The notes under the pieces are model-generated. The model worked only from the letters and a program-made list of their open reading frames with translations. It did no database searches and was not told the DNA's origin. Made by a program: the position numbers and the translations under genes. A stretch of 49,941 bases of DNA from contig DVNI01000103.1 of assembly GCA_018714505.1 (NCBI GenBank), positions 1 to 49,941 of the forward strand, read 5' to 3'. Positions 44,683 through 49,941 of this stretch are shown in pieces; position 1 is the first letter of the stretch, and the number at the start of each line of letters is the position of its first letter. Source of the DNA: Candidatus Avacidaminococcus intestinavium (GTDB taxonomy: Bacteria > Bacillota > Negativicutes > Acidaminococcales > Acidaminococcaceae).

Positions 44683-45300
44683 TTAAAACACTTTACTTAA
44701 TCGTGCTAAGATTGCCGCCGTTACAGCCGCTTCTTCTTGTAACGCATCTACAACGAAAATACGCTCTGGTTCTTGCTCTGCTAAAGCCAGAAATGCTGCT
44801 CGAATCTTTTGCTGAAAAGCAATCCCCTCTAATTCAAATTTATCACTAACCGCCCGTTTAATTCTCCGTGCTAGTAGCGCCTCGGGATCACCGTCTAACA
44901 AAACTGTAAGTGCTGGTACAAGTGCTCCTGTTGCAAAAGAATCAAGCATTTTTAGTGACGCTAGTGGCACCCCACGCCCGCACCCTTGATAGACAAAGGT
45001 GGAATCACTAAACCGATCGCATAGCACAATTTTGCCGGCTTCTAACGATGGTTTAATCAATTGCGCCATATGGTCTGCCCGCGCTGCTAAATAAAGCAGA
45101 GTTTCCGTCTGATGAGCAATCTTAAGGTTTGCGTCTAAAACAAGATTACGAATTTTTTCCGCAGCTGGCGTACCGCCCGGCTCGCGCGTACAAACCACCT
45201 CATAGCCAAGACTCTTAAACCACTCGGCTGTTTTAGCAATCTGCGTAGTTTTACCGCTTCCATCCGCACCTTCAAAAGTTATAAAAACTCCTTTTTTCAT
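44683..45300 (-). CDS. tmk: Thymidylate kinase
   Basis: Phosphorylates dTMP to dTDP. The 205-residue protein has the P-loop FEGADGSGKTTQ, the DR(Y/F) motif VLCDRFSDSTFVYQG and TREPGGTPAAEKIR. Start overlaps the decarboxylase stop by four bases (ATGA), indicating coupling. With comEB (dCMP deaminase) it contributes to dTTP supply. Confidence 0.96.
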   Translation of the reverse strand: MKKGVFITFEGADGSGKTTQIAKTAEWFKSLGYEVVCTREPGGTPAAEKIRNLVLDANLKIAHQTETLLYLAARADHMAQLIKPSLEAGKIVLCDRFSDSTFVYQGCGRGVPLASLKMLDSFATGALVPALTVLLDGDPEALLARRIKRAVSDKFELEGIAFQQKIRAAFLALAEQEPERIFVVDALQEEAAVTAAILARLSKVF

Positions 45301-46721
45301 CTTTTCACCACCTGCACATGTTTCAGTGTACTATCACTTGGTCCGGTTATCGCTAGTCCAAGTTCTAACATTTTTATACAATAATCAATAACTTCTTCTG
45401 AAAAAACTTCTCCAGGAATAATGACGGGAATACCTGGCGGATAAAAAGCAATTTGCTCCGCACTTATTCTATTGTGAGCTGACTTTAAGGGCACCTCTTC
45501 TACCTCTTTATAAAAAGCCGCTTGCGTTGTCAGCTGCGCCCGTGGAGCTGGCAACTGCATAAAATTTGTTTGCTCAAGTGGCAGTAAAGCTCGTGCTTGG
45601 ACTTCCCTTAATACAGCGACAATAACTCTAACGACTTTTTTAAATTCCTCATTGTCATCGGCATAAGTTATTAAAAAAAGTATATTATTACGATCAACAA
45701 GTTCTACCGCAATGCCGCGAGAACGCAAAAGTGCCCCCGCCTCGCTACCGGTAATGCCCAGGCTGGCTACGCAAACCGTCACACGCGCCGCATCAAATCC
45801 TACCACTTCTTGACGCTTAAGAATATTTTCGTTTAAAACTGGCAAGCCTTCAATTTTACTAAGTTCCCTACGCAAAAAGGCAGCTGCGCGCAAAGCACTA
45901 TCTGCCATTGCTCTGCCTTGCTGCGCTAATTGCGCTCGTGCGGCATCTAAAGATGCTAGCAAAAGATAGTTAGGACTAGTCGTTGTTAAAACACTCAAGG
46001 TTTGTGCCACTCGTTGCGCATTTATGCGTGTTCCTTGGATGTGTAGCATCGAACACTGCGTCAATGCGCCTAAAGTTTTATGTGTGCTTTGAGCACAAGC
46101 ATCAGCACCACAGGCTAAGGCTGGTCGTGGCAACAACTCTGAAAAGCCTAAATGCGCACCATGCGCCTCATCCACTAAGAGTAAGGCATCATAGCGATGA
46201 GCAATTTGCGCAATTTGCTCCACATCAGCTGCCAAACCATAATAGTTAGGACTAGTAATTAGCACTGCTTTTATTGCTGGATCACTAGCTAGAGCGTGCT
46301 CAATTTGTTCTGGTAAAACCTGCGTATTAATGCCCCACTCGGCATCATATTCCGGCAATATAAACTTTGCCTCTAAACCGCCAAGTATGAGCGCTCCGGC
46401 TACGGAGCGATGTGCATTACGCGGCACTAAAATTTTATCTTGCGGTCGCAAAGTTCCCAAAAGCATTGCATGAATAGCCCCAGTGGTGCCATTAACAGCA
46501 AAAAAACACTGCTCACTACCATACAACTCAGCCGCTAATGCTTGCGCTTCTTTGATGCACCCCGTAGGAGTATGCAAGTCATCTAATTCAGCCATTAAAG
46601 ATACATCCATGCGCTGCCCCAGCTCACTTAAAGTCGCTTTGAATTCTGTATCCAAGCCCCGTCCGCCCTTATGACCCGGCGTATGTAACGGGTAAACTGC
46701 TTGCTTTTCGTAAGCAACCAA
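45297..46721 (-). CDS. Orn/Lys/Arg decarboxylase family protein (YaaO/SpeA-like), 5' end possibly frameshifted
   Basis: A PLP fold-type I decarboxylase of basic amino acids, 474 residues from a TTG start. PLP lysine in AQSTHKTLGALTQCSML; LHTPGHKGG at the N-terminus and the C-terminal AFYPPGIPVIIPGE are family hallmarks. The uninterrupted frame begins at TTG 46721, but six in-frame codons upstream already read KPLYKAL, as expected of the family's N-terminus. An ATG at 46750 with GGAAGG upstream would read in frame if the A5 tract (plus-strand T5, 46737-46741) had one more A. So either a real frameshift, slippage, or a sequence error exists. Substrate specificity (Arg, Lys or Orn) is undetermined. 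Confidence 0.88.
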   Translation of the reverse strand: MVAYEKQAVYPLHTPGHKGGRGLDTEFKATLSELGQRMDVSLMAELDDLHTPTGCIKEAQALAAELYGSEQCFFAVNGTTGAIHAMLLGTLRPQDKILVPRNAHRSVAGALILGGLEAKFILPEYDAEWGINTQVLPEQIEHALASDPAIKAVLITSPNYYGLAADVEQIAQIAHRYDALLLVDEAHGAHLGFSELLPRPALACGADACAQSTHKTLGALTQCSMLHIQGTRINAQRVAQTLSVLTTTSPNYLLLASLDAARAQLAQQGRAMADSALRAAAFLRRELSKIEGLPVLNENILKRQEVVGFDAARVTVCVASLGITGSEAGALLRSRGIAVELVDRNNILFLITYADDNEEFKKVVRVIVAVLREVQARALLPLEQTNFMQLPAPRAQLTTQAAFYKEVEEVPLKSAHNRISAEQIAFYPPGIPVIIPGEVFSEEVIDYCIKMLELGLAITGPSDSTLKHVQVVKR

Positions 46722-46819: not shown

Positions 46820-46852
46820 TATCAGAAACACAAACCTTTTTTAATATAAAAA

Positions 46853-46895
46853 AAGAAACTGTTAGGTCACCTCTTTCAAGGCCTAACAGTTTCTT
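46853..46895 (-). terminator. Terminator after the adhesin gene
   Basis: Fourteen-base perfect arms (46853-46866, 46882-46895; AAGAAACTGTTAGG) followed on the minus strand by a T-run; nine bases after the stop. Confidence 0.92.
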
Positions 46896-46903
46896 AAGCT
46901 TAC

Positions 46904-48139
46904 TTATTTTAGTCCAGCAATCATTGCTCTCAATTCTTCTAGCTCTGCCGCCATTTTATTGTTAGAACTTTCCAAAGCGCCTAGCTTTTCAGAGAGTCTG
47001 TCATTTTCACTAGTCAAGGTTGACATATTCTTAACTAATTCTTTTTTACTAATATCTCTTGAACTTTTTTTGCCGTCTAAAGCAAAGGCCACACCTAGTC
47101 CATAAATGTTTTCGCCATTGCCCATACTAGCCGAAAAATTTACAAGCGTATTACCATCCGGTCTATAAAAAGCACCTAAAGCAACAGCACTAGAACCATG
47201 ATAGGAACCAACACCAGTGGCAAAGCTTAGCTTATCATCAGCATCATATTCAAGAGGATGCAAAGAAGCCATAGCTGCCGCACCAGCACCAACTTTATCA
47301 ATCTTACTATTGAGACTATTTAGCCGAACATTCACGCCACCATTAACATTATTAATCTGGCTCGCTAAATCATTTAACTGTGAACCATTAATCGCTTCCG
47401 TGCTACTTGCGCTAATTTCACCCTTAGCTACATTAGTAACTTTCCGCTCATTACCAACCGCACCAACAGAAACCGTATTATCAGCATCAGCTACAGAACC
47501 TTGTCCTAGTGCCACCGCATTATTCGCCGTAACCTGAGAATTTTGTCCCAGTGCCGTTGAGCCATTCCCACTAACATCACTGCCTTGCCCTAAAGCTGTA
47601 GAATTGTTACCAGTAACTTTAGAGAATTGACCAAAAGCCGAAGAGAAGTCTCCACTCACTGTGGTCGCCTGTCCAACCGCAGTCGCATTATTACCATCAA
47701 CTTTAGAAAATTGACCGAAAGCCGAAGAAAAATTCCCCGTCACCGTAGTCGCCTGTCCAATTGCAGTCGCATTAGCACCAGTAGCCGTTGCAGCTTCACC
47801 GACCGCGGTCGTCCAACCACCTGTTGCTTTAGAATGTTGACCTAAAGCTGACGCATGGTTACCTGATGCCACACTAGTTTGACCTAAAGCCGTACTCGCT
47901 AGCCCTTCAGCTTTAGCTCTTTGGCCAACCGCCGTGCTATAAGTACCACTAGCAAGAGCTTCACTACCAAGAGCTGATGCTGCTTCACCAGTTGCCTCTG
48001 CATTACCGCCAATAGCTGTGGTTGCTATATTGCCAGCAAATGCACCACCCCAATCATAGCCACCAAGCGCTGTGTTGGCATACACGTTTGCTGACTGTAG
48101 CGTTAAGAGTAATACTCCCAAAACTAATTTCTTATTCAT
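46904..48139 (-). CDS. Trimeric autotransporter adhesin (YadA-like) with C-terminal coiled-coil tail
   Basis: A 411-residue outer-membrane adhesin. Start at 48139 with AGGAGG eight bases upstream; an upstream ATG at 48172 is rejected. Signal peptide 1-21 (ending NVYA). Residues about 36-228 are some 13 YadA-head repeats of 14 residues (TAxGxxAxAxG pattern). A neck (ERKVTNVAKGEIS...AINGSQL, 231-255) leads to a short stalk, then the YadA anchor, about 285-355 (AAAMASLHPLEY, SAVALGAFYRP, YGLGVAFAL). Anchors normally end the protein; here 55 more residues follow (357-411), a charged predicted coiled coil that would lie in the periplasm. Its presence implies a diderm cell. Transcribed from a divergent promoter shared with the riboswitch region. 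Confidence 0.92.
   Translation of the reverse strand: MNKKLVLGVLLLTLQSANVYANTALGGYDWGGAFAGNIATTAIGGNAEATGEAASALGSEALASGTYSTAVGQRAKAEGLASTALGQTSVASGNHASALGQHSKATGGWTTAVGEAATATGANATAIGQATTVTGNFSSAFGQFSKVDGNNATAVGQATTVSGDFSSAFGQFSKVTGNNSTALGQGSDVSGNGSTALGQNSQVTANNAVALGQGSVADADNTVSVGAVGNERKVTNVAKGEISASSTEAINGSQLNDLASQINNVNGGVNVRLNSLNSKIDKVGAGAAAMASLHPLEYDADDKLSFATGVGSYHGSSAVALGAFYRPDGNTLVNFSASMGNGENIYGLGVAFALDGKKSSRDISKKELVKNMSTLTSENDRLSEKLGALESSNNKMAAELEELRAMIAGLK
47618..47785 (-). repeat. 84-bp tandem duplication in the adhesin head
   Basis: Two units, 47618-47701 and 47702-47785, encode nearly the same 28 residues (two 14-residue head repeats, each containing SSAFGQFSKV). This is a recent internal duplication within the larger repeat array, and a likely site of length variation by recombination. 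Confidence 0.75.
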
Positions 48140-48287
48140 AACAATAACCTCCTGAGTAAAAAGTTTATTCAAAAGGCGGAGAAGTTTAATTAGAAAGTAT
48201 ACCTTTTAAAGCAAAGAAATGTTTTCCATCTGAAATACAGTGCTTTATCGAATCTAGCATCGATTAGTAATTAGTATCATTTTACTT

Positions 48288-48940: not shown

Positions 48941-49525
48941 ATGGCAACTACAGATCCCATTAGAGACAAAAAAAATGTAAAAAGACTCATTAATTATTTC
49001 AAGGAACGCGATAAAACACGCAATTGCCTACTTGTTGTTATGGGTGTCCACACAGCACTGCGTATTAGTGATATTCTGAAACTAACCTGGCAAGATGTTT
49101 ATGATTTTGAAAAAAGACGCTTGCGCAAAACAATTTCCCTTACAGAAAATAAAACTGGCAAGAAAAAGACGATTGCTTTGAATAAAGATATTATTGAAAC
49201 ACTCACCCTTTATGCCAAAGAACGTAGTCCTCTTTTGCCTAAAGACTATATATTTCGCAGTCAAATTGCGCCCATGTCACATATCTCTCGAGTGCAGGCT
49301 TATCGCATCATTAAAGAAGCCGCTGTTAATCTCGGCTTAGAAGGTAACATTGCCTGTCATTCGTTACGTAAAACCTTTGGCTATCACGCCTGGAAAGGGA
49401 AGTTTCCCGTGCCCGTTATTATGGAAATCTATAATCACACCTCTTTCGACGTAACCCGTAAATACCTCGGTATCAGCCAAGATGATAAAAATAAAATCTA
49501 TCTCAATATGTCTTTTTTTAAATAA
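48941..49525 (+). CDS. Compact tyrosine recombinase (FimB-sized, catalytic domain only)
   Basis: A 194-residue member of the tyrosine recombinase/integrase family. All catalytic residues are visible: Arg41 (TALRISDIL), a beta-hairpin Lys near 71-76 (ENKTGKKK), His140 and Arg143 (CHSLRKTFG), His166 (YNHTSFDV) and Tyr175 nine residues later (RKYLGIS). Only about 20 residues precede the catalytic domain, so the usual core-binding domain is missing, as in FimB/FimE-type invertases (about 200 residues). A strong AAGGAGAG ribosome site is seven bases upstream. No other mobile-element gene is present. It is downstream of two cobalamin riboswitches and divergent from an adhesin gene. Target site unknown. 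Confidence 0.92.
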   Translation: MATTDPIRDKKNVKRLINYFKERDKTRNCLLVVMGVHTALRISDILKLTWQDVYDFEKRRLRKTISLTENKTGKKKTIALNKDIIETLTLYAKERSPLLPKDYIFRSQIAPMSHISRVQAYRIIKEAAVNLGLEGNIACHSLRKTFGYHAWKGKFPVPVIMEIYNHTSFDVTRKYLGISQDDKNKIYLNMSFFK

Positions 49526-49566
49526 AATAAAGTGGCACCTCAATTTTTGAGGTGCCACTTTATTTT
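49524..49566. terminator. Bidirectional terminator between recombinase and LysR remnant
   Basis: Nineteen-base perfect arms (49524-49542, 49548-49566) containing AGTGGCACCTCA around a five-base loop, with A and T runs at the ends; serves both converging genes. A recombinase site is a less likely reading. Confidence 0.88.
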
Positions 49567-49941
49567 ATGATTTAGCCAAAACTGCTTTACATACATCCAT
49601 GAAGGCTTCTAAACTTGGTGTTATAAATTTATTTTTGTGAGATACCAAGCTGTAGGATCGTCGCAAACTACTTCCAGCAAAAACAAGCTTATTAAGTTCT
49701 CCATTCTGCACTTCTTCACTTATCAAACTTTCAGAAAGCACTGCTATACCTAAACCCAGTTTTGCCGCTTTAATAATTGCACTAAAACCAGAACACTCCC
49801 ACCCTAACTGCCACGAAAACTCTCTACTAGCCATTTCTTTTTAGAATAACACTCTAGTTCCACTACCTTTTTCTCTCACCAAAAATTCTTCATCACGTAA
49901 ATCATATAAATCAATCTTCGTTTTTTTATAAAGACGGTGCG
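49565..49941 (-). pseudogene. LysR-type regulator, effector-binding domain, internal stop (5' part outside window)
   Basis: The C-terminal half of a LysR substrate-binding domain. Reading upstream of an ATG at 49834, the same frame continues as YDLRDEEFLVREKGSGTRVLF, then a TAA at 49843-49841, then KEMASREFSWQLGWECSGF, LGLGIAVLSE. Family proteins run through this point (LREKGSGTR...F-x-x-x) without a break, so one substitution (for example GAA to TAA) has interrupted an otherwise intact gene. The rest of the gene lies beyond the window edge. A residual 89-residue product from the internal ATG would lack DNA binding. A base-call error is possible. Confidence 0.8.

What the first reader, a model, noticed from the sequence alone, without database searches (positions are those of the whole stretch)
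46904..47071. Adhesin with a coiled-coil extension after its outer-membrane anchor
YadA-type proteins end at the last beta strand of the anchor, whose terminal aromatic is used in outer-membrane insertion. Here about 55 residues (357-411) follow the anchor and form a charged heptad-like helix. It would sit in the periplasm as a trimeric coiled coil, possibly linking outer membrane to cell wall, a role otherwise played in Negativicutes by OmpM-type proteins.
Basis: partly seen in the sequence, partly recalled or inferred. Interest (0 to 1): 0.6.

Follow-up and report, generated by a model that had tools for sequence, protein, structure and literature searches.

The report
Adhesin with periplasmic coiled-coil tail
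This is a surface adhesin of a Negativicutes bacterium whose outer-membrane anchor is followed by a roughly 55-residue helical tail; the tail is real, but every complete adhesin of this kind sampled in this bacterial class has such a tail, and a 2020 paper already reported the pattern, so it is an ordinary member of a known, still functionally unexplained, design.

Summary
ORF 46904-48172 (-) encodes a trimeric autotransporter adhesin (TAA): signal peptide, 12 YadA-head repeats, stalk and YadA anchor. An AlphaFold2 model shows the complete four-strand anchor, a loose linker, and one 46-residue helix (ORF residues 376-421, pLDDT about 94) with no strand in the tail. The helix is a clean heptad repeat (p = 3e-5). 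Neither refutation condition is met. The premise that YadA-type proteins end at the last strand holds for Proteobacteria but not for this class: all 147 complete anchors sampled have tails of 31-201 residues, either coiled coil alone or coiled coil plus an SLH domain. The same genome holds both kinds. Béchon et al. [quoted passage not shown] the coil's function was left open. I favour a periplasmic trimer clasp that stabilises the barrel and resists pull-out. Direct wall binding belongs to the SLH kind. A Braun-lipoprotein-like covalent link was tested and is disfavoured.

The parts
46904..48172 (-). Trimeric autotransporter adhesin ORF (422 aa from TTG; 411 aa from the more likely ATG at 48139)
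   Evidence: the ORF listing; Pfam YadA_head, YadA_stalk (below cut-off), YadA_anchor
48074..48139 (-). Signal peptide region (MNKKLVLGVLLLTLQSANVYAN), start at ORF residue 12
   Evidence: read from sequence; no signal-peptide predictor run
47444..48073 (-). Passenger head and neck region with YadA-head repeats
   Evidence: PF05658, 12 stretches, E 5.8e-31; outer limits approximate
47267..47386 (-). Stalk and pore helix, ORF residues 263-302
   Evidence: AlphaFold2 model; PF05662 at 244-281 below cut-off
47084..47230 (-). Four anchor strands, ORF residues 315-363 (three chains give a 12-strand barrel)
   Evidence: AlphaFold2; Foldseek to Hia/AtaA/YadA anchors; PF03895 308-363
47048..47083 (-). 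Periplasmic linker, ORF residues 364-375
   Evidence: low-confidence stretch of the model
46910..47047 (-). Periplasmic coiled-coil helix, ORF residues 376-421
   Evidence: AlphaFold2 helix, pLDDT about 94; heptad test p 3e-5; weak coiled-coil Pfam matches below cut-off
46847..46895 (-). Intrinsic terminator-like hairpin with T-run just after the stop codon
   Evidence: strand folding z -4.7

Best explanation
The protein is a class-typical Negativicutes trimeric autotransporter adhesin. After the fourth anchor strand the chain emerges in the periplasm, crosses a short flexible linker and forms a helix of about 46 residues that zips with its two copies into a trimeric coiled coil under the barrel (about 7 nm long at 1.5 angstrom per residue). 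The coil most likely acts as a clasp: it holds the three chains together at the membrane's inner face (helping trimer registration during assembly and stabilising the 12-strand barrel) and, being a bulky hydrophilic body that cannot cross the membrane, resists the adhesin being pulled out under load. It does not itself bind the wall; wall binding is an optional extra in sister proteins that add an SLH domain beyond a similar coil. Shown here: gene, complete anchor, helix, heptads, class-wide presence of tails, same-genome SLH sister. Inferred: trimeric state, periplasmic location (from topology) and the clasp function.
For: Complete anchor followed by one helix with strict heptads; 106 of 118 unique coil-only tails show heptads at p<0.05. 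All 147 complete anchors of the class carry a tail, shortest 31 aa. Coil-only tails (median 59 aa) resemble the spacer before the SLH domain (median 48 aa) and some of both kinds share an S[K/R]xA-type start; the two kinds interchange on an anchor tree (17 changes, only 2 forced by well-supported branches). F. nucleatum CbpF, which has a similar tail, was expressed in E. coli as residues S24-K479 with a Strep tag after the tail and gave an SDS-stable membrane trimer (PMC12012533), so such a tail is compatible with barrel insertion. In AtaA, simulations with a hydrophilic periplasmic partner (TpgA-N) bound under the barrel roughly doubled the extraction force even without wall coupling (PMC13082670). 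OmpM has a periplasmic triple coiled-coil stalk between barrel and SLH domain (PMC10628300).
Against: No experiment on any coil-only tail was found. The model is a monomer; Asn at two 'a' positions is more typical of dimeric coils (own knowledge). The AtaA extraction data are simulations with a partner protein, not a tail. A few tails in the class are poor heptads (for example L146, L113, L116), so a coil may not be strictly required.
Confidence: 0.55

Rival explanations
1. The coil-only tail is itself an outer-membrane-to-wall tether that touches or binds peptidoglycan non-covalently.
For: Length (about 7 nm) could reach toward the wall; SLH and OmpA-type wall-binding domains occur at the same position in related TAAs (PMC7549365).
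Against: No wall-binding domain in the tail; beyond heptads the coil sequences are highly variable (alignment A2); the genome already has three OmpM-type tethers and an SLH-tailed TAA.
Confidence: 0.15
2. The tail works like Braun's lipoprotein: a trimeric coil whose C-terminal lysine is covalently linked to peptidoglycan by a YkuD-type L,D-transpeptidase.
For: 56 of 91 coil-only tails end in Lys, as does this one; own genome has one YkuD gene; length is similar to Lpp (own knowledge).
Against: SLH-tailed proteins end in Lys nearly as often (15 of 32) against 8 of 43 other window genes (counted). Terminal Lys is not significantly associated with YkuD across genomes (28 of 33 with, 16 of 24 without; Fisher p = 0.12), and four related genomes with no detected YkuD have Lys at the end of all 9 sampled tails. 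A helix C-terminus favours Lys anyway.
Confidence: 0.05
3. The tail mainly serves biogenesis: it nucleates trimerisation in the periplasm before the barrel is inserted by a simplified BAM machinery, and has no load-bearing role afterwards.
For: A tail is universal in the sampled class while proteobacterial TAAs lack it; Negativicutes have a single Omp85 and a simplified BAM/TAM (PMC5491611).
Against: Isolated proteobacterial anchors trimerise without any tail (own knowledge); not separable by sequence from the clasp reading.
Confidence: 0.22

Closest known systems
Veillonella parvula trimeric autotransporters with post-anchor coiled-coil or SLH domain (Béchon et al. 2020, PMC7549365; Poppleton et al. 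2017, PMC5491611 for SLH)
   Same: YadA anchor not at the C-terminus, followed by a coiled-coil tail without other domain; same class of bacteria
   Different: Different family (relatives in the own family carry names such as Phascolarctobacterium, Succiniclasticum, Acidaminococcus); sequence of the coil is not conserved
Fusobacterium nucleatum CbpF (PDB 9GH4/9GH5)
   Same: YadA anchor plus about 50-residue heptad tail; phmmer aligns anchor and tail (F. vincentii homologue L248)
   Different: Different phylum; tail not resolved in the cryo-EM structure; function of the tail untested
Proteobacterial YadA, Hia, AtaA anchors
   Same: Four-strand anchor fold
   Different: Chain ends at the last strand; AtaA instead uses a separate wall-binding partner, TpgA
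OmpM / SlpA
   Same: Periplasmic trimeric coiled coil attached to an outer-membrane barrel
   Different: Coil and SLH domain are N-terminal to a porin barrel; they carry a wall-binding SLH domain, absent here

Membership tests
Trimeric autotransporter adhesin (type Vc) | YadA-type head repeats and YadA_anchor domain above curated cut-off | tested here: met
   PF05658 106.6 bits, PF03895 47.2 bits
Trimeric autotransporter adhesin (type Vc) | Four-strand anchor preceded by a pore helix, fold as in Hia/YadA | tested here: met
   AlphaFold2; Foldseek hits 3emo, 9vnj, 2gr7, 2lme
Trimeric autotransporter adhesin (type Vc) | Homotrimer | not testable with these tools
   Only monomer prediction available
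Proteobacterial-type TAA | Chain ends at the last anchor strand with terminal aromatic | tested here: not met
   59 residues follow the anchor match; eight proteobacterial plasmid TAAs (six distinct anchors) end there
Negativicutes TAA with post-anchor domain (Béchon et al. 2020) | Coiled-coil or SLH domain after the YadA anchor | tested here: met
   Helix 376-421, heptad p 3e-5; sister TAA in the same genome with coil plus SLH
Wall-tethered TAA (SLH or OmpA-like tail) | SLH or OmpA-family domain after the anchor | tested here: not met
   No such Pfam match
OmpM | N-terminal SLH domain, coiled coil, C-terminal porin barrel | tested here: not met
   Domain order and content differ; OmpM-type proteins are on contig C109
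Braun-lipoprotein-like covalent wall link | Terminal Lys used by an L,D-transpeptidase; co-occurrence with YkuD | tested here: inconclusive
   Terminal Lys present, but no significant association with YkuD across genomes (p 0.12)

The most novel reading that the evidence does not exclude
The post-anchor coil is an obligatory part of the trimeric autotransporter anchor in Negativicutes, a built-in replacement for periplasmic partners such as TpgA: it clasps the trimer under the membrane so that long adhesins are neither misassembled by a minimal BAM machine nor pulled out under load, with SLH domains added to some copies for wall coupling.
Probability: 0.35. Interest if true: 0.45.

Novelty: new member of a known kind. 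Interest (0 to 1): 0.25.

Why it matters
The single protein is ordinary for its class. The useful outcome is the class-wide count: every complete YadA anchor sampled in the class has a tail, of two interchangeable kinds, which turns the unexplained coiled-coil tail noted in 2020 into a clean test (delete the tail, or compare coil-only with coil plus SLH) of how diderm Firmicutes hold large adhesins in the outer membrane without the proteobacterial machinery.

Tried and rejected
Frameshift or read-through origin of the tail: rejected (terminator just after the stop; homologous tails in frame). Hidden final strand in the tail: rejected by the model. Braun-lipoprotein-like covalent link by the terminal Lys: tested through YkuD co-occurrence and terminal-residue counts, disfavoured. 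A simple Fourier hydrophobicity test was too weak on short tails (only 33 of 107 at p<0.05) and was replaced by a heptad count. A single-sequence scan of genome contigs found nothing; the alignment scan worked. The tree of anchors rests on about 80 columns and cannot give gain or loss direction. Two Neisseria hits in the plasmid search were not followed.

Full report
What is there. The stated interval 46904-47071 is exactly the last 55 codons plus the stop. A stable hairpin with a run of U follows the stop at once, so the gene truly ends there.

Is the tail outside the anchor? AlphaFold2 on residues 245-422, with 32 relatives from named genome contigs, gives the stalk/pore helix (263-302), four strands (315-324, 327-336, 342-351, 354-363), a low-confidence linker and one helix from 376 to 421 at pLDDT about 94. 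Foldseek retrieves the solved anchors of Hia, AtaA and YadA and nothing else of weight. The tail has 11 of its 14 large aliphatic residues on a/d positions of a single unbroken heptad register; 200,000 shuffles with best-of-seven registers give p = 3e-5.

How unusual is it? Anchors found by PF03895 in the own family (43 of 59 genomes) and class (141 of 301 genomes) were read to their stop codons: 31 loci, then 150 loci. All 147 with an in-frame stop have a tail of 31 residues or more; none ends at the anchor. Eighty further loci with named organisms (Phascolarctobacterium, Succiniclasticum, Acidaminococcus, Veillonella, Megasphaera, Dialister, Mitsuokella, Anaerovibrio and others) show the same; the two sets overlap, and together give 189 different tails: 123 without SLH (median 59 residues, nearly all coiled coil), 65 coil plus SLH (64 by pattern and L184 by eye), and one SLH-less long tail. 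By contrast eight gammaproteobacterial TAAs on plasmids (six distinct anchors) end at the anchor with a terminal W or F, and the four proteobacterial anchors in the PDB end within 3 to 5 residues of the match. A Fusobacterium homologue has a tail of about 50 residues, as has CbpF, 9GH4. Within the own genome the only other detected YadA anchor carries coil plus SLH plus a charged end, and three SLH proteins of OmpM size lie together on contig C109, of which the one read in full has the OmpM domain order.

What was known. Poppleton et al. 2017 described SLH domains after the YadA anchor in three V. parvula TAAs (PMC5491611). Béchon et al. 2020 stated that all V. [quoted passage not shown] The finding is therefore a further member of a described kind, in a different family of the same class.

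How it probably works. By the topology of the four-strand anchor the tail must be periplasmic (established for YadA/Hia; inference here). Three copies of a strict heptad helix fixed beneath one barrel will very probably form a trimeric coil. OmpM shows that a thermally stable triple coiled coil under an outer-membrane barrel is normal in these bacteria (PMC10628300). CbpF shows that a barrel followed by such a tail and a further tag still gives a stable membrane trimer in E. coli (PMC12012533). Simulations of AtaA show that a hydrophilic body bound under the barrel about doubles the extraction force without any wall coupling (PMC13082670). Together these favour a clasp that stabilises and retains the trimer; the wall link seems to be the job of the SLH variants, whose coil spacer (median 48 residues) is about as long as the coil-only tails. 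The two kinds interchange on an anchor tree (17 changes against 58 for shuffled labels; only 2 forced by well-supported branches), so they look like modular variants.

A tempting alternative, tested. Many coil-only tails end in Lys (56 of 91), recalling Braun's lipoprotein. But SLH tails end in Lys too (15 of 32), other genes of the window do so in 8 of 43 cases, and terminal Lys is not significantly more common in genomes with a YkuD transpeptidase (p = 0.12); four genomes of one genus without detected YkuD have Lys at the end of all 9 sampled tails. Incomplete assemblies could hide a YkuD gene, so this disfavours rather than excludes the idea.

Limits. The trimer was not modelled. Anonymised genomes come without names. 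Coil-only versus other tails was called by length and SLH pattern; a few (L146, and the Ala/Lys-rich tails L103, L104, L107, L109, L112-L115) are not convincing coils. No experiment addresses the coil-only tail directly.

Noticed in passing
L001 (G000:C127, anchor 67637-67801): The second TAA of the same genome has, after its anchor, a short coil, an SLH domain closely resembling OmpM's, and a conserved ...VERVRVN...DKYGS end found in many SLH-tailed TAAs; that end motif also survives in SLH-less tails (L007, L176, L195), suggesting a separate function.
   Followed up: partly
L053, L121, L131, L135, L140 and others (other families of the class): About 21 coil tails share a conserved block just after the barrel, RYKxGPISSVYVMQDE, unlike the S[K/R]xAMAKEI start of other tails; perhaps a distinct plug or docking element under the barrel.
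   Followed up: no
window 48941-49525 (+) and 49565-49834 (-): A tyrosine recombinase (PF00589) and a short LysR substrate-binding domain fragment lie between the adhesin gene and the end of the contig; possible mobile element or inversion next to the adhesin.
   Followed up: no
G022-G025 and G013-G018 (own family): No YkuD L,D-transpeptidase detected in several nearly complete genomes although most relatives have one to five, so the enzyme has a patchy distribution in this family.
   Followed up: partly
L237-L239 (G000:C109, 12.9-18.8 kb): Three OmpM-type paralogues near each other; the one read in full (L238) ends in the classical terminal aromatic (TFSF), whereas the adhesin's last strand is internal.
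   Followed up: partly
window 45297-46721 (-): An Orn/Lys/Arg-decarboxylase-like gene lies just downstream of the adhesin beside the thymidylate kinase gene; worth noting because Negativicutes decorate their wall with cadaverine or putrescine, though this neighbourhood may be coincidental.
   Followed up: no
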